From the NCBI GenBank assembly GCA_024227975.1, contig JAAETV010000034.1, positions 1 to 8,198 of the forward strand: DNA of 8,198 nucleotides, written 5' to 3'. Under the pieces are notes generated by a model. That model saw only the letters and a list, made by a program, of their open reading frames with translations, had not been told where the DNA came from and did no database searches. Positions 1-8,115 of the stretch are shown here, piece after piece. Position 1 is the first letter of the stretch; each line of letters starts with the position of its first letter. Origin of the DNA: Actinomycetes bacterium (GTDB lineage: Bacteria; Actinomycetota; Acidimicrobiia; Acidimicrobiales; SZUA-35). Position numbers and translations under genes: made by a program.

Positions 1-818
1 CCCTGGCGGTACTCGAGGTGGAGGCGGCGGACGTGAGGTCGATGCTCGGCGATGGGTAGCTCAGAAAGTTCGAGTAGCTCAGCCGGATCGACGTCGATGG
101 TGAGTCGCAATGGTGAAGTGTCACCGTCGATGTCAAGCAAACAGCTGAGCCACCCCAAAGAGCAGTAGCCCTCACGCTCCAGGTAGATGTGGCGCAGCAC
201 AATCAGAGGGTCAGGGCATGGTCGGACGCCCAGTCGCCTCACCTGGTCGTGTCCTACCAGGGCTTGATGGCTCTGAAGCCGCTGCTCGGGATCCTTGGTT
301 CGGACCATGTTCAGGATGAGCTCCTGGTGGGGAACCGATAGCTGTCGGTCGGTGCAGATGATCCGACCGTCGACCAGCTGGGAATAGAGAGCGACCGCGC
401 CACTCCGTTGAGAACGGCAGATGAGCAACTCGCCGGCGGAATAGACCTTGTACACCGGGCTGCCATCGTCGTTGTCATCGATCAGGGTGAACACCAACTC
501 TGGTCGTCCGTCCGTGCCCCCATCCGATCCTTCCTGACCGCCGCAGATCTCGCTGTCCCCGTAGTGAACGGTCTCCCTGGTGTAGGCCCGGAGGTACCGG
601 ATGTCGACTGGGTTCGTGGCCAAGGCAGCAACTACCCAGAGCCCCAAGAGAATGAGCGGCAACAAAACAGCCACAGCAACGGCCTTTGCCACTGAGATGT
701 CGGTTCCGAGCAACAAGCCGGACACGAGGACCACGAACATTATCGAGAAGACGGCCGATAGGCGCCTGCGAAGTCCTCGCAGTATTCGATCTCTGAGCCA
801 CCGTTGGTTCGGATCCAT
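1..818 (-). CDS. Unrecognised membrane-anchored protein, N-terminal part (3' end beyond the window)
   Basis: Reading the minus strand from the ATG at 818 gives 272 codons without a stop to the window edge, so the gene is truncated by the window and not broken. An in-frame TAA lies two codons before this ATG, so the start cannot lie further upstream. No good Shine-Dalgarno sequence is visible. Residues 1-20 are strongly basic (RDRILRGLRRR). Two hydrophobic helices follow at about 22-38 and 42-67, separated by a very short turn. The positive-inside rule places both the N-terminus and the long remainder (from about 70) in the cytoplasm. The soluble part is mixed alpha/beta in appearance, with an acidic loop (LIDDNDDGS, 112-120) and six cysteines (92, 134, 155, 201, 219, 226). 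I recognise no family and assign no function. It is divergent from the transporter at 897, with 78 bases between them. Confidence 0.72.
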   Translation of the reverse strand, partial: MDPNQRWLRDRILRGLRRRLSAVFSIMFVVLVSGLLLGTDISVAKAVAVAVLLPLILLGLWVVAALATNPVDIRYLRAYTRETVHYGDSEICGGQEGSDGGTDGRPELVFTLIDDNDDGSPVYKVYSAGELLICRSQRSGAVALYSQLVDGRIICTDRQLSVPHQELILNMVRTKDPEQRLQSHQALVGHDQVRRLGVRPCPDPLIVLRHIYLEREGYCSLGWLSCLLDIDGDTSPLRLTIDVDPAELLELSELPIAEHRPHVRRLHLEYRQ

Positions 819-879
819 GCCTTATCTGTCGGTTACTGGCCAGCCAGTCTGAGATCACTCCACGTTTGTCTTCGATTGC

Positions 880-887
880 AGGAGGTG
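880..887 (+). promoter_or_regulatory. Ribosome binding site of the DMT transporter
   Basis: AGGAGGTG, a near-perfect Shine-Dalgarno sequence, ends nine bases before the ATG at 897. It decides the start: an upstream in-frame ATG at 804 would overlap the divergent gene and has no comparable site. Confidence 0.85.
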
Positions 888-896
888 CCCCCAACG

Positions 897-1787
897 ATGT
901 TCGGAGTCCTTCTGGCCGCTCTTTCGGCCCTCTCCTACGGCGCATCCGACTTCTCGGGCGCCGTGGCGTCGAAGAAGGCCGACTCAACCGTCGTCACCGT
1001 GGCTGCTCAGGTTGTCAGCCTCCTGACATTGCTTGCCGTGCTCCTGGTCATGCCGGCCCCAGACCGGAATCTCGTCGATCTCGGCTGGGGCGCCCTCGGT
1101 GGGATTGGCGTTGCCGTTGCCCTGGTTGCCTTCTACCGCGCCTTGGCCCAGGGACCGATGTCAACCGCAGCCGCGACGACCGCTCTGCTCAGTGCCGCCG
1201 TTCCCGTGTTCTTTGGCCTCGTGGTTGGCAACCACCCCGAGCTCCTGACCCTCGTCGGGGTCATGCTGGCGGTCCCAGCCACGGTCTCGGTGGCCGTCGG
1301 GGGCCTGAATTACCATCGCCGAACAATCGACTTCTCGCCGCGAGATCGTGCCACGAGACGAAAGGGGGTAGCCAGTACCCGTCTCCTCTCGGTCATCGCT
1401 GGCCTCGGTTTCGGTTTGTTCTTCGTCGCCCTGTCCCGTGTCTCGGGAGACTCGGGACTCTTTCCGTTGATCGGGGCGCGAGGGGCGTCGATCGCGGCCT
1501 TGGTCGGGTATCTGACCCTTCGCCGGAGTTGGACCCCCCTTCCCAGGCCAACTCGTGGCTCAGTCCTGATAGCCGGCATCTTCGATTGCGGAGCAAACAG
1601 CACCTACCTTCTCGCTCTGGATCGAGGTTCCTTCATCTGGGTTGCTGCCATCGCCTCTATGTATCCGGTCACTACTGTGCTGCTCGCTCGGCTCCGGTTG
1701 GGAGAGGCCCTCTCCCGCATCCAGATGCTCGGGCTCGCGGGCACCATGATTTCCCTAGTGCTCATCACGGTTGGCGCCGAGATCTGA
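897..1787 (+). CDS. EamA/DMT-superfamily transporter
   Basis: This is a 296-residue integral membrane protein of the drug/metabolite transporter superfamily, which moves small metabolites across the cytoplasmic membrane; the substrate cannot be read from sequence. About ten hydrophobic helices fall into two halves (roughly 1-135 and 165-296), separated by a basic hydrophilic loop near 138-163 (HRRTIDF...RATRRKG). Each half has the EamA character: an N-terminal helix with small residues (LSALSYGASDFSGAVA) and, near the end of repeat two, the pattern LGEALSRIQMLGLAGTMISLV, which matches the usual glutamate followed by Q..G at the start of the last helix. The length is normal for the family. The start at 897 is chosen for its strong ribosome binding site. 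The next gene lies 87 bases downstream on the same strand, so co-transcription with the cyclic di-GMP protein is possible but unproven. Confidence 0.88.
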   Translation: MFGVLLAALSALSYGASDFSGAVASKKADSTVVTVAAQVVSLLTLLAVLLVMPAPDRNLVDLGWGALGGIGVAVALVAFYRALAQGPMSTAAATTALLSAAVPVFFGLVVGNHPELLTLVGVMLAVPATVSVAVGGLNYHRRTIDFSPRDRATRRKGVASTRLLSVIAGLGFGLFFVALSRVSGDSGLFPLIGARGASIAALVGYLTLRRSWTPLPRPTRGSVLIAGIFDCGANSTYLLALDRGSFIWVAAIASMYPVTTVLLARLRLGEALSRIQMLGLAGTMISLVLITVGAEI

Positions 1788-1874: not shown

Positions 1875-4800
1875 ATGGACAAGCTTTGGAGAGCCTGGCT
1901 TGCCGCTTCAGCGGCGGTAGCAGCGTTCTACTTCGTCGTCGACAACACACCCGAGTCCAAGCTGGTCCTCTACAACGGTGTCGGGCTGATCTCCATCATC
2001 ATGGTGGTGGTCGGCATCAGGGCCAACGGCGCCAGGCCTCGCCCGCCCTGGCTCTGGTTTGTGGCCGGGCTCTCGTCGTTTCTCATCGCCGACGTCATCT
2101 ACTACGTCCTAGAACTGCAACACCCAGAAGGACCCCCATTTCCGAACCTCGCCGATGGCTTCTATCTCGGCATGTATCCGGCCATGATCGTCGGTCTCAC
2201 GAAGCTGGTGCGACACGTCGCCCCAGGACGAGACAAGGCCAGCTTCATCGATGCGGCTGTGGTGGGAACGGCCATGTTCGGGATCATGTGGGTGCTGTTC
2301 GTCGACGATGTCTTGAGTAGCGGGGCCGGCATCAACTCCGCCCTCATCGTCTCTCTCGCCTACCCGGTGATGGACGTGGCGCTGTTGGCTGTTGCCGCCC
2401 GACTTGTCGTTACGGTCCACCTGAAGCACTTGCCGTTTGCCTTCATCGTAGGAGCGATCGGTTCACTGGCTATCGCCGACACGGCCTATCAGATCAAGCT
2501 CGGAAACGGCTCCTTCGCCACGGGCCAGTTCCCTGATGCCTTCTGGCTTGCCTTCTATGTGGGGTTCGCCCTAGCTGCCCTCCATCCCAATGCCTCGCGG
2601 AAGGCGCCGCGAAATGACGAGGTGGGCCGCTTGAGCGGGACCCAGCTTGCCATCATGTTTTTTGCCACCCTCGCGGTTCCTGTCGTCGACCTCTTCTTCG
2701 GCCGACCCGAAGATCGCATGGTGACCATCGTCGCCTCGGCTCTGCTCTTCCTTCTCATCCTGGTGCGAGTCTTTGCCCTGATGAAGACGGTCGAAATGGG
2801 CCGTGATCAGCTCCGCCATGAGGCGGAGCACGACGCACTGACCGGTTTGGCCAATCGAGTCCTGTTCTCGAAGCGAACCGCCGAGGCCCTCGCCCCGGAG
2901 CTCAGTGGCAAGTCAGCCGTTCTCTTCATTGATCTCGACGATTTCAAGACCGTCAACGACAGCCTCGGGCATGAGGCCGGTGACCGGCTTCTCGCCGAGG
3001 TGGCCGTTCGGCTCCGCCGTTGCGTCGGCAGCAATGCCACCGTCGCTCGTTTTGGAGGAGACGAGTTCGCCATCCTCATCGACCAGATGGGTAGCCGCCG
3101 TGACGTGGTCAATGTGGCCCGCCAGGTCTTGGAGCTCCTCAACGATCCGATTGATCTCGGCGCTCGGGTCGTTAGGGCCCCTGCCAGCATCGGAATCGCC
3201 CTTCAGAAAGGCGATACCACCGATGTTGATTCGCTTCTGCGCAACGCTGACGTTGCCATGTACCTGTCAAAGGCACGTGGAAAGGGACGATTCGAGTTCT
3301 TCGAAGCGACGATGCACGAGGAAGCGGTCGAACGGCTGGATCTGAAGGCGGATCTGCAGCGAGCCCTTGACAATGGGGAGTTCGTACTCAATTATCAGCC
3401 GGTCTTCAACCTCGAGACCGGGCGGGTCGCCTTGGTCGAGGCACTGATCCGGTGGCAGCACCCGACGAGAGGAATGATCCAGCCTGATCGTTTCATCCCG
3501 CTCGCTGAGGAAAGTGGTCGGATCGTTGAGATCGGACATTGGGTCCTTCAGGAAGCCTGTAGTCAGGCCCGCCAGTGGCAGGACATCGATGGCTACGAAG
3601 AGCTTGGGATCACAGTCAATCTGTCGATGCGGCAGCTCCAGGACAACACACTGCTGAATAGTCTCACCAACGCACTCCGGGACTCTGGGCTGTCGGCATC
3701 GAGTCTGGTACTCGAGATCACTGAGTCGATGCTTGCCAGTGACCCCGATCACGGTGCCAGTGTCTTGAGCCAGCTCAAGACGATCGGGGTGAAGCTGGCG
3801 ATCGATGACTTCGGTACGGGCTACTCATCGCTGAGCTACCTGCGTTCGTTCCCCGTGGACGCCATCAAGATAGACCGGTCCTTCATCGGAGAGTTGCACC
3901 ACTCCTCGACGTCCAATGCGCTCATCGACGCCGTGGTGAATCTGGCAGGAGCCCTCGGTGCTTACACCGTTGCTGAGGGGATCGAGCACAGTGATCAGGC
4001 CAGTCAGCTTCGCAAGCTCGGTTGCGACCATGGCCAAGGGTTCTACTACTGCAGGCCAGTCAGCGCATCGGCTCTCAGCACGCTGCTCAGGCAACACCGC
4101 GGAGATGAGGACGAACCTCTGGACTCCTGGCGCCGGTCATCACAGCTGGTTCAGAAGCGCTCATTTGATGTGACCGTTCGTGATGGACTGCCGGCGATCC
4201 AGTCGGTGGCAGCCGACATCGAACAGCTTGGTCGAGATATGGCGGTGCCAGTGATGGGCACTTGGCCCTGGTTGCGTCAGTGGGCCGACTCGTTCTCCAA
4301 CTGGTCGCCGATGCTGATCGAGGTCAGGGCCGCTGATACCGGTCTACTGGTGGCCACGGCCAATCTGGCCCGCATCGACCGGGCGCAGGGGTCGGCAATC
4401 GTGGCCATGGGCCACGGAAGCTCCCTCTACACCGCCCTTTTGGCTAGAGACGATGCCGCCGCAAACGCGTTGGCCCACGCGGTGGCCGACACCCTGAACG
4501 ATATGCCAGACGCATGGTCACTGGAGCTCGAGCAGGTCCATGAGCTCGACCCCGCGGTGAGCCAACTCGTCGAACTTCTCGATCATGCCCAGGTGCTACC
4601 CGAACTGAGGGTGCCCCGAGTGGTATTCGCGTCCGCCCACACCGTCGATGACGTACTCAGCAAGAGTATGCGCAAGCAGCTCCGCCGGGCCCGCAATCGG
4701 ATCGACAACGAAGGCATCGGCCTGACCATTGGCTTCGACCGAGGCGATGCCGTGAGTACCCAGTTGATCGATGAAGTCGAGGCGGTTCACGTCTCACGTG

Positions 4801-5222
4801 ACCGTGATGCGCGGCGGAGGTCTGATCTCGATCGCCCGTCAGAACGTGACTTCTGGCGGCGAGTGGTTGAGGCAAACGGGGCCGACTGGGAAGTTGAGAT
4901 AGCCTCCCTCCGGCTCGACGGTGAACTGGCGGCCTATGTCGTCGCACTGCTCGACGGCGACACCTACCGTGTCTACGACGGTCGCATGAGTACGGCTCAC
5001 CAGGAGTACTCACCCGGCCGACTCGTTGAAGCGGCCGCACTCAGCCGGGCCATGGGCGACCAGCGATTCACGGTCCTCGACTGGATGTCGGGGGTGGCGG
5101 CAGAGAAGTTGCTCACCACCAACATCGCTGAAGGGCGAGTGCGCCTGGTCGCCACGTCAGGTAGCCGCTACCTGAGCATACCCAAAGACGCGCGGGACCT
5201 GAAGAGCACCGCCGACGCCTGA
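1875..5222 (+). CDS. Membrane GGDEF-EAL protein fused to a CelD/FemAB-like GNAT acyltransferase
   Basis: This 1115-residue protein combines cyclic di-GMP synthesis and hydrolysis with a putative acyl- or aminoacyltransferase. Residues 1-303 hold about ten membrane helices, followed by a short charged linker. The GGDEF domain (about 315-475) has D353-L-D-D-F, NDSLGH and G394-G-D-E-F398, so cyclase activity is expected; the inhibitory RxxD site is absent (GSNA at 385-388). The EAL domain (about 497-740) keeps E522-A-L, N582, E614, D644/D645, K665, E701 and Q721, so phosphodiesterase activity is expected. From about 765 to 1105 comes a tandem GNAT-like module: TWPWLRQW (796-803), then SKSMRKQLRRARNR (929-942), SPG (1046-1048) and LDWMSG (1068-1073) with K1078, matching Acetyltransf_6 (PF13480) of CelD/FemAB proteins. 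These modify glycans, lipids or peptidoglycan precursors; the acceptor here is unknown. No ribosome binding site precedes the ATG, and no other in-frame start lies between 1788 and 1875. The frame is unbroken throughout. Confidence 0.88.
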   Translation: MDKLWRAWLAASAAVAAFYFVVDNTPESKLVLYNGVGLISIIMVVVGIRANGARPRPPWLWFVAGLSSFLIADVIYYVLELQHPEGPPFPNLADGFYLGMYPAMIVGLTKLVRHVAPGRDKASFIDAAVVGTAMFGIMWVLFVDDVLSSGAGINSALIVSLAYPVMDVALLAVAARLVVTVHLKHLPFAFIVGAIGSLAIADTAYQIKLGNGSFATGQFPDAFWLAFYVGFALAALHPNASRKAPRNDEVGRLSGTQLAIMFFATLAVPVVDLFFGRPEDRMVTIVASALLFLLILVRVFALMKTVEMGRDQLRHEAEHDALTGLANRVLFSKRTAEALAPELSGKSAVLFIDLDDFKTVNDSLGHEAGDRLLAEVAVRLRRCVGSNATVARFGGDEFAILIDQMGSRRDVVNVARQVLELLNDPIDLGARVVRAPASIGIALQKGDTTDVDSLLRNADVAMYLSKARGKGRFEFFEATMHEEAVERLDLKADLQRALDNGEFVLNYQPVFNLETGRVALVEALIRWQHPTRGMIQPDRFIPLAEESGRIVEIGHWVLQEACSQARQWQDIDGYEELGITVNLSMRQLQDNTLLNSLTNALRDSGLSASSLVLEITESMLASDPDHGASVLSQLKTIGVKLAIDDFGTGYSSLSYLRSFPVDAIKIDRSFIGELHHSSTSNALIDAVVNLAGALGAYTVAEGIEHSDQASQLRKLGCDHGQGFYYCRPVSASALSTLLRQHRGDEDEPLDSWRRSSQLVQKRSFDVTVRDGLPAIQSVAADIEQLGRDMAVPVMGTWPWLRQWADSFSNWSPMLIEVRAADTGLLVATANLARIDRAQGSAIVAMGHGSSLYTALLARDDAAANALAHAVADTLNDMPDAWSLELEQVHELDPAVSQLVELLDHAQVLPELRVPRVVFASAHTVDDVLSKSMRKQLRRARNRIDNEGIGLTIGFDRGDAVSTQLIDEVEAVHVSRDRDARRRSDLDRPSERDFWRRVVEANGADWEVEIASLRLDGELAAYVVALLDGDTYRVYDGRMSTAHQEYSPGRLVEAAALSRAMGDQRFTVLDWMSGVAAEKLLTTNIAEGRVRLVATSGSRYLSIPKDARDLKSTADA

Positions 5223-5364: not shown

Positions 5365-6063
5365 CTACGGCGTCATCCCCATGGAGATGGCGACCCGGTC
5401 GACCTGGTGAGTGAAGAGGGCGTCGACGTCATCGAACATGTTGGTGTAGCGGCCAAACACTTCGAAGCTGACCATACCGAAGAGGAGGGCCCAGGCGCTG
5501 GTAGCGGCCATGAACCGCTGGTGGTTGAGCTCCACCTCTTCCGAGTCGAGCAATCGCGAGATCTGCTCGGCCAAGTGCTTGGGGATGGCGACCTGGTCGG
5601 GGACCGGGACGCCAGCCTGATCGAGAGCGACGCAGATGGTGCCCAATTGGCGGAAGACGCGGGTGGCGGGATCGACAGTGTCATGGGGGGCGGCATAGCC
5701 AGGCACCGGGGTTCCGTAGATGAGGGCATACATCTGGGGGTTGGACCTGGCCCAAGCCCGGGCTGAGTTGGCCAGGGCCCGCCACTGGCAGAGTGGGTCG
5801 CTCCTGGCTGCTTCGAGCCCAGCATCGCAGGCGTCGCCGAGCTCGTCGTAGGCCACGATGATCAGCTGGGTCAGGAGGGCATCTCGGTCGGGGAAGTAGC
5901 GGTAGAGAGCGGAGGAGGCCATGCCCAACTCTCGGGCCACTGCCCGAAGCGACAGCTGCCCCGGCCCGACCTCGGCCACCTGGCGGCGGGCGGTGGCGAG
6001 GATCTCGGCCGTGATCTCGGTGCGGGCTCGCTGGCGGGCAGTCCGGGGTGCGCTGGTCGGCAT
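5365..6063 (-). CDS. TetR-family transcriptional regulator with WHG-type C-terminal domain
   Basis: This is a 232-residue DNA-binding repressor, normal for TetR. The N-terminus has the family helix-turn-helix, LSLRAVARELGMASSALYRYF at about 37-57, followed by PDRDALL. The C-terminal ligand and dimer domain resembles PF13305 (TetR_C_33/WHG): WARSNPQMYALIYGTPVPGY (104-123) and WALLFGMVSFEVFG (191-204). The usual WxxxHG signature reads W191-A-L-L-F-G196, so histidine is replaced by phenylalanine. The start at 6063 is preferred: the open frame reaches back to an ATG at 6258, but that would overlap the divergent gene by 47 bases. The nearest promoter-like sequence also puts transcription start at or beside the A of this ATG, implying a leaderless message. 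It is divergent from the dehydrogenase at 6212, the usual arrangement of a TetR repressor and its target. The ligand is unknown. Confidence 0.88.
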   Translation of the reverse strand: MPTSAPRTARQRARTEITAEILATARRQVAEVGPGQLSLRAVARELGMASSALYRYFPDRDALLTQLIIVAYDELGDACDAGLEAARSDPLCQWRALANSARAWARSNPQMYALIYGTPVPGYAAPHDTVDPATRVFRQLGTICVALDQAGVPVPDQVAIPKHLAEQISRLLDSEEVELNHQRFMAATSAWALLFGMVSFEVFGRYTNMFDDVDALFTHQVDRVAISMGMTP

Positions 6064-6069
6064 CGGGCC

Positions 6070-6098
6070 ATTGTGTCCCGTTTCGAGAGCAATGACAA
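6070..6098 (-). promoter_or_regulatory. Predicted promoter of tetR (leaderless)
   Basis: On the minus strand, TTGTCA (6098-6093) matches five of six bases of the -35 consensus. CACAAT (6075-6070) matches four of six of the -10. The spacer is exactly 17 bases. Six bases separate the -10 from the ATG at 6063, so transcription would begin at or within a base or two of the start codon. This agrees with the absence of a Shine-Dalgarno sequence. Confidence 0.5.
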
Positions 6099-6159
6099 TA
6101 ATCGAGAGCACCGCTCTTGTTCTTCGGATCCGGCTGTGCCATAGTGACAAGTGAGAGCA
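6083..6159 (+). repeat. Three copies of GAGAGCA in the tetR/dehydrogenase control region
   Basis: TCGAGAGCA occurs at 6083-6091 and 6102-6110, with starts 19 bases apart. GAGAGCA recurs at 6153-6159. The second copy is half of an imperfect inverted repeat, GAGAGC-acc-GCTCTT (6104-6118). The first copy sits in the spacer of the tetR promoter, the second just before the -35 of the dehydrogenase promoter, and the third at its expected transcription start. They may be regulator contacts; a short low-complexity coincidence is possible. Confidence 0.35.
6117..6145 (+). promoter_or_regulatory. Predicted promoter of the dehydrogenase gene
   Basis: TTGTTC (6117-6122) and CATAGT (6140-6145) are separated by exactly 17 bases, matching three and four of six consensus positions. 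Transcription would start near 6152, giving a leader of about 60 bases that carries the ribosome binding site. The match is moderate. Confidence 0.4.
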
Positions 6160-6160
6160 G

Positions 6161-6178
6161 TGATCTCGAATCAGATCA
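6161..6178 (+). promoter_or_regulatory. Candidate TetR operator: 18-base palindrome
   Basis: TGATCT-CGAATC-AGATCA: perfect six-base arms around a six-base centre, in the region between the divergent tetR and dehydrogenase genes. It lies just downstream of the predicted dehydrogenase transcription start and 33 bases before its ATG, where a bound repressor would block transcription. The length and symmetry suit a TetR dimer. Confidence 0.5.
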
Positions 6179-6198
6179 ACAGTCTCTACCTGTCCCCC

Positions 6199-6206
6199 AA
6201 GGAGGG
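6199..6206 (+). promoter_or_regulatory. Ribosome binding site of the dehydrogenase
   Basis: AAGGAGGG ends five bases before the ATG at 6212 and is a strong Shine-Dalgarno match that fixes this start. Confidence 0.8.
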
Positions 6207-6211
6207 CTCTC

Positions 6212-7132
6212 ATGAGCTTCCACGTCATCGTCGGTGCCGGTCCCATCGGAACGGGCACCGCACTCCAACTGGTTGACCGGGGCCATCAGGTCCGTATCAT
6301 CACCCGGTCGGGATCTGGCCCCAGCCATGATCGCATCGAGTTGGTAGCGGCCGATGCCACTGATGTCGCACGCCTCGTCGAACTGAGCGAAGGCGCGCAC
6401 TCGCTCTACAACTGTGCCAATCCCCCCTACGACAAATGGCCGACGGCCTGGCCCCCTCTGTCTGCCAGCCTGATCAGGGCAGCGACCGCCACCGGCGCCC
6501 GACTCGTCATCATGAGCAACCTCTACGGCTACGCCGAGAACAGCTCACCGATGAGAGCAACCGACCCCCTCGATCCACCATCGAAGAAGGGCGCGGTTCG
6601 AGCTCAGATGTGGCGTGATGCCCTCGCCGCCCATGAGGCCGGAGAGATCCAGGCCACCGAATTGAGGGCTTCGGACTTCTTCGGACCCGGCCTGGGTCAG
6701 GGCGCCCAGCTTGGTGATCGGGTCGTACCCAAGGCGTTGGCTGGCAAGAACGTCAGCGTCGTTGGCGACCCCGATGCCCCCCACAGCTGGACCTTCGTCG
6801 ACGACATCTGCGTAGCCCTGGCCACCCTCGGCACCGACGATCGCTCTCTCGGGCGGGCTTGGCATGCTCCCACCGCACCACCCCAGAGCGCCCGCCAGAT
6901 GGTGACCCAGTTGTGCCAGGCGGCCGGGGTCAAGCCGGTGAAGGTGAAGCCGGTACCGCCGCTCATGCTCAAGGCCATGGGTCTCGTCGTCCCGGCGGTC
7001 GGTGAGCTGGGCGAGATGCTCTACCAGTTCGAAGAGCCGTTCATCATCGATGCCACCGACACCGAAGAGACCTTCGGCATCACATACACCCCCCTCGACT
7101 CCCAACTCGAGAAGACGGTCGCCGGCTGCTGA
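6212..7132 (+). CDS. Atypical extended SDR: NAD(P)-dependent epimerase/dehydratase-like protein
   Basis: This 306-residue cytoplasmic protein has a Rossmann fold with an N-terminal dinucleotide motif, VIVGAGPIG (5-13), fitting the extended short-chain dehydrogenase/epimerase group (NAD-dependent epimerase family, PF01370-like). Other family marks are the acidic VAADATD (45-51), YNCANPPY (66-73) at the end of the beta-4 region, IMSNLYGY (100-107) holding the serine of the catalytic set, and the SWTFVDDIC stretch (192-200) near the substrate end. The usual YxxxK is not intact: the lysine position (K125 or K126 in DPPSKKG) is present, but the residue four before is D121 or P122, not tyrosine. 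It may therefore bind NAD(P) without classical chemistry, or use another acid. The substrate is unknown. The gene is divergent from tetR, probably its target, and convergent with the queuosine gene 23 bases downstream. Confidence 0.83.
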   Translation: MSFHVIVGAGPIGTGTALQLVDRGHQVRIITRSGSGPSHDRIELVAADATDVARLVELSEGAHSLYNCANPPYDKWPTAWPPLSASLIRAATATGARLVIMSNLYGYAENSSPMRATDPLDPPSKKGAVRAQMWRDALAAHEAGEIQATELRASDFFGPGLGQGAQLGDRVVPKALAGKNVSVVGDPDAPHSWTFVDDICVALATLGTDDRSLGRAWHAPTAPPQSARQMVTQLCQAAGVKPVKVKPVPPLMLKAMGLVVPAVGELGEMLYQFEEPFIIDATDTEETFGITYTPLDSQLEKTVAGC

Positions 7133-7142
7133 TGAACCCCTC

Positions 7143-7159
7143 CTGACCGTGGCGGTCAG
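7143..7159. terminator. Shared hairpin between convergent dehydrogenase and qng1-like genes
   Basis: CTGACCG, loop TGG, CGGTCAG: a perfect seven-pair stem starting ten bases after the dehydrogenase stop and covering the stop codon of the minus-strand gene (7156-7158). It has no T-run on either strand. Its position between two gene ends suggests a two-way terminator. Confidence 0.45.
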
Positions 7160-8115
7160 TAGAGAAGGGTGAGTGTTCGGTGGTGTTCGCCGAACGAGGC
7201 GGCCTGTGGGCCGAGGACTGCTTCGGACCAAAGTCGATAGTCGAGGGCGGGGGTCACCACTGGATTGCCCCGCTTGGCCAACGCCTGGCGTAGTTGAGTG
7301 CCGCAGTAGACGGTGGCCCATCGCAGGGCGTGTTCGGCTTCGGAGTCGGCCGGGATCAGCTGGCGACCGTCGATGCTGGCGGCGAGGTCTGGTGAGTACA
7401 CCATGACGCCGAAGTGGCGCAGCACTCGGGGCAACATGTAATCGGGGTAGACGGGGAAGTCGTCGTAGTTGGTGAAGCCGGCGTCGGACCAGCCGAGGCC
7501 GGCCGCCATGAGGGCGGCGGCCAGGTGTGACAACTTGTCGAAGGGCAGCTGGCCGACGCTGGACTGGGGTCGGTCGTAGTAGCCGGGCATCGTCTCGGTC
7601 AACAGATCGGCGATCCGCTTGGCGTCGCGATTGGCGGTGGCCACGAGGTTGGAGGCTGTGCCGTCGTATCGGTCGATGATGGTGCGGGCTACCCGACGGA
7701 GGGTGTCGATTCGTTGGGGGATCAGCTGGAGCGTCCCCCGACCGGCGAAGAGGGCCGACCCCTCGCCTTCAGTGAGGGCGGCGAAGCCGGCGAGTGAGAG
7801 GCCGTCGGGTCCGAGTTTGCGGCTGAAGACGGTGAAGATCCCCGGGGCGTCGTCGAGCCACTGGCCGTCGAGCTCGGCGTGCCAGACCTCGTCGCCTTCA
7901 GGTGGCCAAAGGCAGGCCAAGACGGACACAGCGAGAGTCACATAGTCGAACCACCAGTCCTCGTGGCGCTCACGGGGGGTGCCGGGATAGTCGAAGGCTG
8001 GCAACAGGAATGTGTCGCCCGACCACCGATCAGCCAGCGCGTCGATGGCGTCGTGGTCGACCGTGACCCCCCACTCCGGTGGGGGTGGCAAGGCCTGGAG
8101 ATCGACGATGGTCAT
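7156..8115 (-). CDS. Queuosine salvage nucleosidase-like protein (Qng1/DUF2419 family)
   Basis: This 319-residue cytoplasmic protein fits the Q_salvage family (PF10343, DUF2419), whose studied members release queuine from queuosine 5'-phosphate so that the base can be reinserted into tRNA. The fit is clearest in the C-terminal half: FPVYPDYMLPRVLRHFG (220-236) followed by VYSPDLAASID (239-249), then DSEAEHALRWATVYCG (257-272) and LDYRLW (291-296). The N-terminal half has the tryptophan-rich segment EDWWFDYVTLAVSVLACLWP (52-71), where typical members have a more conserved N-F-x-F-W pattern, so this is a divergent branch. The length is normal. The start at 8115 is supported by a GGGAGGA ribosome binding site eight bases upstream. 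No other queuosine gene lies in the window, and none of the neighbours suggests a pathway link. An unrelated nucleosidase role cannot be excluded. Confidence 0.78.
   Translation of the reverse strand: MTIVDLQALPPPPEWGVTVDHDAIDALADRWSGDTFLLPAFDYPGTPRERHEDWWFDYVTLAVSVLACLWPPEGDEVWHAELDGQWLDDAPGIFTVFSRKLGPDGLSLAGFAALTEGEGSALFAGRGTLQLIPQRIDTLRRVARTIIDRYDGTASNLVATANRDAKRIADLLTETMPGYYDRPQSSVGQLPFDKLSHLAAALMAAGLGWSDAGFTNYDDFPVYPDYMLPRVLRHFGVMVYSPDLAASIDGRQLIPADSEAEHALRWATVYCGTQLRQALAKRGNPVVTPALDYRLWSEAVLGPQAASFGEHHRTLTLLY

What the first reader, a model, noticed from the sequence alone, without database searches (positions are those of the whole stretch)
1875..5222. Cyclic di-GMP synthase/hydrolase fused to a CelD/FemAB-like acyltransferase in one membrane protein
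GGDEF-EAL proteins are usually built from sensor domains plus the two enzymes; an additional C-terminal catalytic-type domain is rare. Here about 340 residues after the EAL domain carry the marks of a tandem GNAT protein of the CelD/FemAB type: TWPWLRQW at 796, the basic SKSMRKQLRRARNR helix at 929, SPG at 1046 and LDWMSG..AEK at 1068. Such proteins often act in exopolysaccharide, cell-wall or lipid modification, which are processes cyclic di-GMP commonly controls. A single polypeptide could sense a signal, set local cyclic di-GMP and act on an envelope substrate. I do not recall this architecture being described; that is recollection, not a search.
Basis: partly seen in the sequence, partly recalled or inferred. 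Interest (0 to 1): 0.78.

Follow-up and report, generated by a model that had tools for sequence, protein, structure and literature searches.

The report
Signal enzyme fused to envelope acyltransferase
In a lineage of poorly studied Actinomycetota, one membrane protein carries both the enzyme parts for the bacterial signal cyclic di-GMP and a transferase of the kind that modifies cell-wall or surface material; the pairing, usually with a transporter gene beside it, recurs in other bacteria as neighbouring genes, so it looks like a real working unit.

The parts
1875..5222 (+). Fusion gene, 1115 aa: membrane region, GGDEF, EAL, tandem GNAT
1875..2789 (+). Residues 1-305: integral membrane region, 8 hydrophobic segments, no Pfam match over its cut-off
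   Evidence: simple hydropathy scan; Pfam
2823..3287 (+). Residues 317-471: GGDEF domain, signature intact; RxxD inhibitory-site positions are G385 and A388 here
3348..4058 (+). Residues 492-728: EAL domain, catalytic-type residues intact
4155..5174 (+). Residues about 761-1100: tandem GNAT with Fem/MprF-synthase fold
4662..5108 (+). Residues 930-1078: PF13480 Acetyltransf_6 (second GNAT)
804..1787 (+). EamA-family (PF00892) transporter of the linked subfamily; the subfamily profile starts at 897, so the true start may lie near there
3..818 (-). C2: protein of unknown family, cut by the window end; next to EamA in 12 of 18 intact fused loci
   Evidence: no Pfam, PHROGs or PDB match over cut-off

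Best explanation
The protein is a membrane-anchored, c-di-GMP-wired transferase. SHOWN by sequence and model: one chain with membrane segments, intact-looking GGDEF and EAL signatures, and a tandem GNAT of the Fem/MprF-synthase/CelD fold with no membrane segment of its own; recurrent linkage of this GNAT to GGDEF-EAL proteins, fused or as adjacent genes; a linked EamA-type transporter. INFERRED: the membrane region senses a signal and sets the GGDEF/EAL balance; local c-di-GMP, or the conformation of the GGDEF-EAL module, switches the attached GNAT; the GNAT moves an acyl or aminoacyl group from acyl-CoA or aminoacyl-tRNA to an amine on a membrane-bound envelope precursor (exopolysaccharide, lipid or wall intermediate); EamA carries the substrate or product across the membrane. 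It would thus work like HfsK (c-di-GMP-controlled tandem GNAT acting on an adhesin polysaccharide), with the signalling enzyme built into the same chain.
Confidence: 0.5

Rival explanations
1. Reverse direction: the tandem GNAT is a sensor. It binds an acyl-CoA, aminoacyl-tRNA or envelope precursor and tells the attached GGDEF-EAL module how much c-di-GMP to make or break, with or without catalysis of its own.
For: EAL and GGDEF residues are invariant, so the c-di-GMP enzyme is itself under strong constraint; the GNAT is on the same chain and could report substrate supply.
Against: The protein already has a membrane region of sensor type. In split loci the GNAT is a separate protein. Charged residues of the GNAT are invariant across 14 fused, split and distant rows (R937, R975, E1008, R1049, E1052, D1069, alignment position plus 744), as expected of an enzyme, though also possible for a binding site.
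Confidence: 0.18
2. The GNAT is a protein N-acyltransferase (as the cAMP-regulated Pat enzymes, recalled) that modifies a protein partner, for example the EamA transporter or a c-di-GMP effector.
Confidence: 0.15
3. Two independent activities joined only for co-expression; neither controls the other.
For: The split form exists without covalent attachment; the linker varies from about 35 to about 200 proline-rich residues.
Against: The same GNAT family is linked to two GGDEF-EAL lineages (AU p 4.5e-7 against one clade); 26 other EAL loci read in the same six genomes have no such GNAT within about 1.5 kb; all 18 intact loci of the clade keep the fusion.
Confidence: 0.15
4. Annotation or assembly artefact: two genes joined by a lost stop.
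For: None beyond the fact that split forms exist.
Against: 106 database clusters and 17 further intact fused loci (L001-L015, L065, L066) show one open frame.
Confidence: 0.02

Closest known systems
HfsK of Caulobacter crescentus (PMC5362036, passages read)
   Same: Tandem GNAT with FemX as nearest solved structure, c-di-GMP link, membrane association, inferred action on a surface polysaccharide
   Different: Soluble protein without GGDEF or EAL that binds c-di-GMP with the help of a short C-terminal extension; here the c-di-GMP enzyme and the membrane region are in the same chain and that extension is not recognisable. Sequence kinship not tested
FemABX aminoacyl transferases (FemX, FemA)
   Different: No match to the FemAB Pfam model; no evidence of aminoacyl-tRNA use; Fem proteins carry no signalling domains (recalled)
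MprF / lysyl-phosphatidylglycerol synthase
   Different: No match to its Pfam models; MprF has a flippase domain (recalled), here GGDEF-EAL lies between and the transporter is a separate EamA gene
GGDEF-EAL proteins with solved structures (4rnh, 5m3c)
   Same: Closest solved relatives of residues 314-736 (E 1.1e-113 and 7.3e-102)
   Different: The matched chains end with EAL; the names MorA and MucR are partly recalled (the listing says Motility regulator and Diguanylate cyclase)
CelD/BcsL-type PF13480 acetyltransferases
   Same: Same Pfam family
   Different: Stand-alone proteins (recalled); no NCBIfam model matched the C-terminal part at E up to 1

Membership tests
PF13480 Acetyltransf_6 (CelD/BcsL-type GNAT) | Score over the curated cut-off | tested here: met
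   63.0 bits whole protein, 64.1 for residues 745-1115, cut-off 22
PF13480 Acetyltransf_6 (CelD/BcsL-type GNAT) | Acyltransferase activity on an envelope substrate | not testable with these tools
   needs biochemistry
GGDEF-EAL bifunctional c-di-GMP enzymes | GGDEF signature | tested here: met
   G395 D396 E397 F398 in 76 of 76 chains
GGDEF-EAL bifunctional c-di-GMP enzymes | EAL catalytic-type residues | tested here: met
   11 positions identical in 76 of 76; which residues are catalytic is recalled
GGDEF-EAL bifunctional c-di-GMP enzymes | RxxD inhibitory site (not obligatory) | tested here: not met
   Window has G385, A388; R in 47 of 76, D in 73 of 76
GGDEF-EAL bifunctional c-di-GMP enzymes | Synthesis and hydrolysis of c-di-GMP | not testable with these tools
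   needs biochemistry
FemABX | FemAB Pfam model (PF02388) match | tested here: not met
   not among families at E up to 1
FemABX | Two GNAT domains in the Fem arrangement | tested here: met
FemABX | Aminoacyl-tRNA as donor | not testable with these tools
   -
MprF | Pfam match to its synthase and flippase domains | tested here: not met
   neither among families at E up to 1
HfsK-type c-di-GMP effector | Tandem GNAT with FemX-like fold | tested here: met
   HfsK description from PMC5362036
HfsK-type c-di-GMP effector | C-terminal extension with arginines that helps bind c-di-GMP | tested here: inconclusive
   last 20 residues poorly conserved (mean 0.325); no HfsK sequence was compared
EamA/DMT transporters | Two EamA repeats, score over cut-off | tested here: met
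   66.8 bits, 2 stretches, cut-off 28.2

The most novel reading that the evidence does not exclude
EamA, GGDEF-EAL and the Fem-type GNAT form a self-contained, signal-gated envelope-modification machine: sensor, second-messenger switch, transferase and flippase or exporter in one locus, i.e. an MprF-like synthase-plus-transport unit placed under private c-di-GMP control, assembled at least twice with different GGDEF-EAL partners.
Probability: 0.25. Interest if true: 0.85.

Novelty: new variant of a known kind. Interest (0 to 1): 0.66.

Why it matters
How c-di-GMP enzymes reach specific targets despite a diffusible messenger is a long-standing question. Here the enzyme and a probable target are one polypeptide, or neighbouring genes in relatives, so local control can be tested directly: break the GGDEF, the EAL or the linker and measure the GNAT. 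It also offers a candidate c-di-GMP output, with a defined transporter partner, in Actinomycetota outside the well-studied genera (that few such outputs are known there is recalled).

Tried and rejected
Whole genome of the window: none held, so copy number and neighbours beyond 8.2 kb are unknown. No sequence relative of the GNAT part among solved structures (two chance matches, E 0.2), none for EamA (two chance matches, E 0.6), none for C2.

Considered and rejected: read-through or assembly artefact. L064 looked split inside the fused clade, but its frame runs into undetermined bases, so it is counted neither as fused nor as split. L146 has the GNAT about 1.6 kb downstream of a GGDEF-EAL gene and is not counted as adjacent; the stretch between gave no Pfam family. 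tRNA and Rfam scans of the window found nothing. L134 (another EamA of the linked subfamily in G005) has no GGDEF-EAL or GNAT in its 19 kb. Weak GNAT matches of the genome searches (L033, L034, L037-L043, L050, L062, L063) were not examined for neighbours. Neighbour proteins were tested by Pfam only in a chosen set.

Full report
WHAT IS THERE. The window's ORF 1875-5222 (+) starts with ATG and encodes 1115 aa. Pfam finds GGDEF at 317-471, EAL at 492-728 and PF13480 Acetyltransf_6 at 930-1078 (63.0 bits, cut-off 22). A simple hydropathy scan gives 8 hydrophobic segments in residues 1-305, one inside EAL (682-700, probably not a membrane segment) and none in the GNAT part, so the GNAT should lie in the cytoplasm next to the membrane (inference). 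The membrane region matches no Pfam family over its cut-off.

THE FUSION IS CONSERVED. A search with residues 745-1115 among proteins 0.55-1.75 times the length of the whole returned 92 proteins; 91 carry PF13480 and EAL, 90 of these GGDEF as well. The exception, P0086, is identical to the first 888 residues of the window's protein, probably cut by a contig end. A search with the C-terminal part of the most distant fusion (P0092) returned 17, all with the three domains, 15 of them new. Both scored only the best ~7990 candidates, so these are lower bounds. Names, where given, are Acidimicrobiales, Acidimicrobiia, Ilumatobacteraceae and Actinomycetota, apart from one Verrucomicrobiales MAG label (P0066, 61% identity), perhaps a binning error. 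A search with the C-terminal part alone (length limits exclude whole fusions) gave 46: 6 with EAL, 40 without. Of the 40, 25 are 60% or more identical to the window; their contexts were not seen, so single split genes in this clade are not excluded.

Over 76 full-length chains (the window and 75 of the 92; truncated and some near-alike rows left out) the median identity to the window is 62.0% for the membrane region, 65.2% GGDEF, 73.4% EAL, 52.6% first GNAT, 74.9% second GNAT. dN/dS of the second GNAT is 0.026, 0.035, 0.041, 0.118 and 0.196 in five of six pairs (not computable in L002/L005); of EAL 0.021-0.205, of the first GNAT 0.032-0.339 (dS exceeds 1.5 in some pairs, so these are rough). 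The second GNAT is held as firmly as the EAL domain; the first drifts more.

CATALYTIC SIGNATURES. Eleven EAL-type positions and GGDEF 395-398 are invariant in 76 of 76. The RxxD inhibitory site has R in 47 and D in 73 of 76; the window has G385 and A388 and so lacks it. Across 14 fused, split and distant GNATs R937, R975, E1008, R1049, E1052 and D1069 are invariant (alignment position plus 744).

SPLIT FORMS AND THE TRANSPORTER. One scan of genome contigs gave 22 loci; more came from whole-genome searches, of which I fetched the surroundings of the strong matches. Six-frame profile scans (recount) cover 39 loci with the window: 18 intact fusions (window, L001-L015, L065, L066); 11 with the GNAT as its own gene directly after a GGDEF-EAL gene on the same strand (L017, L018, L020, L067, L069-L074, L145); 1 with undetermined bases between the halves (L064); 1 with the GNAT about 1.6 kb downstream (L146); 4 with no GGDEF-EAL in the stretch read (L068, L129, L130, L131); 4 cut by a contig end (L016, L019, L021, L022). 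L132, L133, L135, L147 and L148 re-read contigs already counted. In L018 the two genes overlap by four bases, in L017 the gap is 14 bases. Some loci are close kin (L010 and L011 nearly identical; L009, L013 near them; L069-L074 one family), so they are not independent.

An EamA-type (PF00892) gene stands beside 25 of the 29 fused or adjacent-split loci: 15 of 18 fused (not L004, L065, L066) and 10 of 11 split (not L018); in L001 and L145 only its end lies on the contig. It is upstream on the same strand in 13 of the 15 fused loci, divergent in L014, convergent in L012, upstream of GGDEF-EAL in the Kineococcus family, and downstream of the GNAT in L017, L067 and L145; the cut locus L021 has it too. 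It is one subfamily: 24 linked EamAs (23 of the 25, and L021) score 210-442 bits on a profile made from 14 of them (the ten held out 210-437), while of 20 other EamA places chosen from five of the same genomes 15 gave no match at E 1e-3, four gave 22 bits or less, and one (L123) 176. Six genomes hold 2-26 EamA half-matches and 7-45 EAL matches each, so adjacency by chance should be about 1% or less per locus (my estimate). Of 30 EAL loci read from those genomes with about 1.5 kb on each side, the only 4 with this GNAT are the linked ones already known. A second neighbour, C2 (no family known), lies next to EamA in 12 of 18 fused loci and was not detected in the split ones.

HISTORY. In a tree of 43 GNATs (L011 and short pieces left out, 11 database proteins added) the fusions form one group (support 89) with L064 inside it; L017 and L067 lie beside it and the Kineococcus genes further off (quick method, several weak forks). 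In a tree of 53 GGDEF-EAL regions (five repeats left out) the 28 linked ones fall in two places, 20 (the 17 fusions with L064, L017, L067; support 94) and 8 (Kineococcus family with L018; support 99), among 25 unlinked; holding the 28 together is rejected (AU p 4.5e-7). Long branches are present among the paralogues, so the number of origins is less sure than the p value suggests. Either the GNAT was joined to GGDEF-EAL twice or its partner was replaced; both argue for a functional tie.

DISTRIBUTION. Patchy. In the family of G005, 16 of 39 genomes match: 13 fusions, one with undetermined bases, one cut by a contig end, and one weak match not examined. In a second family 4 of 19 match, open frames 1132-1160 aa. 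In the family of a Kineococcus genome 9 of 12 match. Wider draws: class 9 of 395 at E 1e-3, phylum 4 of 396 at E 1e-20, with at most five candidates scored per genome; order of G006 6 of 148 at E 1e-20 (at most 13 scored). Many are drafts, so absences are soft.

FUNCTIONAL HINTS. Other neighbours of the fusions recur only in sets of two to four loci, mostly close kin (one such family, in L009, L013, L014 and L016, was not identified), and 14 neighbour proteins tested by Pfam around fused loci (L064 included) gave no recognisable envelope pathway. Beside split loci, L018 has an L,D-transpeptidase gene and L071 a cell-wall-binding-repeat gene, single cases. Stand-alone relatives are more telling: L129 has this GNAT, a second PF13480 GNAT and a polysaccharide deacetylase in a row; L131 (a weak relative, 68 bits) has GNAT, deacetylase, GNAT; L068 lies beside a Wzy-type ligase; L130 gave nothing. 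Deacetylase plus GNAT is the pairing of HfsH and HfsK in holdfast modification (PMC5362036 and PMC8449245, passages only). HfsK is a tandem GNAT closest to FemX among solved structures, binds c-di-GMP (Kd 724 nM), moves from membrane to cytosol at peak c-di-GMP and is proposed to be inactivated by it. The same passages say that its chemistry is unclear, and in Hirschia baltica its deletion had no holdfast effect.

READING. I take the protein for a membrane-anchored transferase with its own c-di-GMP switch (confidence 0.5 for the mechanism; about 0.97 for the architecture). Sensor-type use of the GNAT, protein acylation, and mere co-expression remain open.

NOVELTY. Six searches of the open-access library listed no paper whose title or abstract start concerns a GGDEF-EAL/GNAT fusion; PF13480 with GGDEF had no hit, and the one paper holding EamA, GGDEF, GNAT and operon is a table of enriched domains in marine bacteria (PMC12487129, passages). 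sought later HfsK papers. Subscription papers and preprints are not covered. Database entries exist under names such as 'GNAT family N-acetyltransferase' or 'diguanylate cyclase (GGDEF)-like protein', so the sequences are known and the architecture is visible in Pfam annotation, but no account of it was found. Known domains, new combination, with a conserved partner: a new variant of a known kind.

Noticed in passing
window 3-818 (-): C2: conserved neighbour protein with a hydrophobic stretch near its N-terminus (by eye) and no Pfam, PHROGs or PDB match, next to EamA in 12 of 18 intact fused loci.
   Followed up: partly
window 5365-6258 (-) and 6212-7132 (+): TetR-type regulator divergent from an NAD-dependent epimerase-type gene; no blastp match at 1e-5 among the genes called in the other loci.
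   Followed up: no
window 7156-8115 (-): Queuosine salvage protein (PF10343, E 1.4e-25).
   Followed up: no
window 3027-3038 (residues 385 and 388 of the fusion): The RxxD inhibitory site of the GGDEF domain is missing here though the aspartate is kept in 73 of 76 chains.
   Followed up: partly
L065 and L066: Fusions whose EAL and GNAT parts are joined by a proline-rich linker of about 200 residues instead of about 35; a methyltransferase gene follows in L065.
   Followed up: partly
L129, L131: Two PF13480 GNAT genes with a polysaccharide deacetylase in one run, an HfsK/HfsH-like pairing.
   Followed up: partly
L123 / L134 (G005): A second EamA of the linked subfamily without GGDEF-EAL or GNAT in 19 kb.
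   Followed up: yes
G404, G407 (family of a Kineococcus genome): 38 and 45 EAL-domain matches per genome, a large c-di-GMP repertoire.
   Followed up: no
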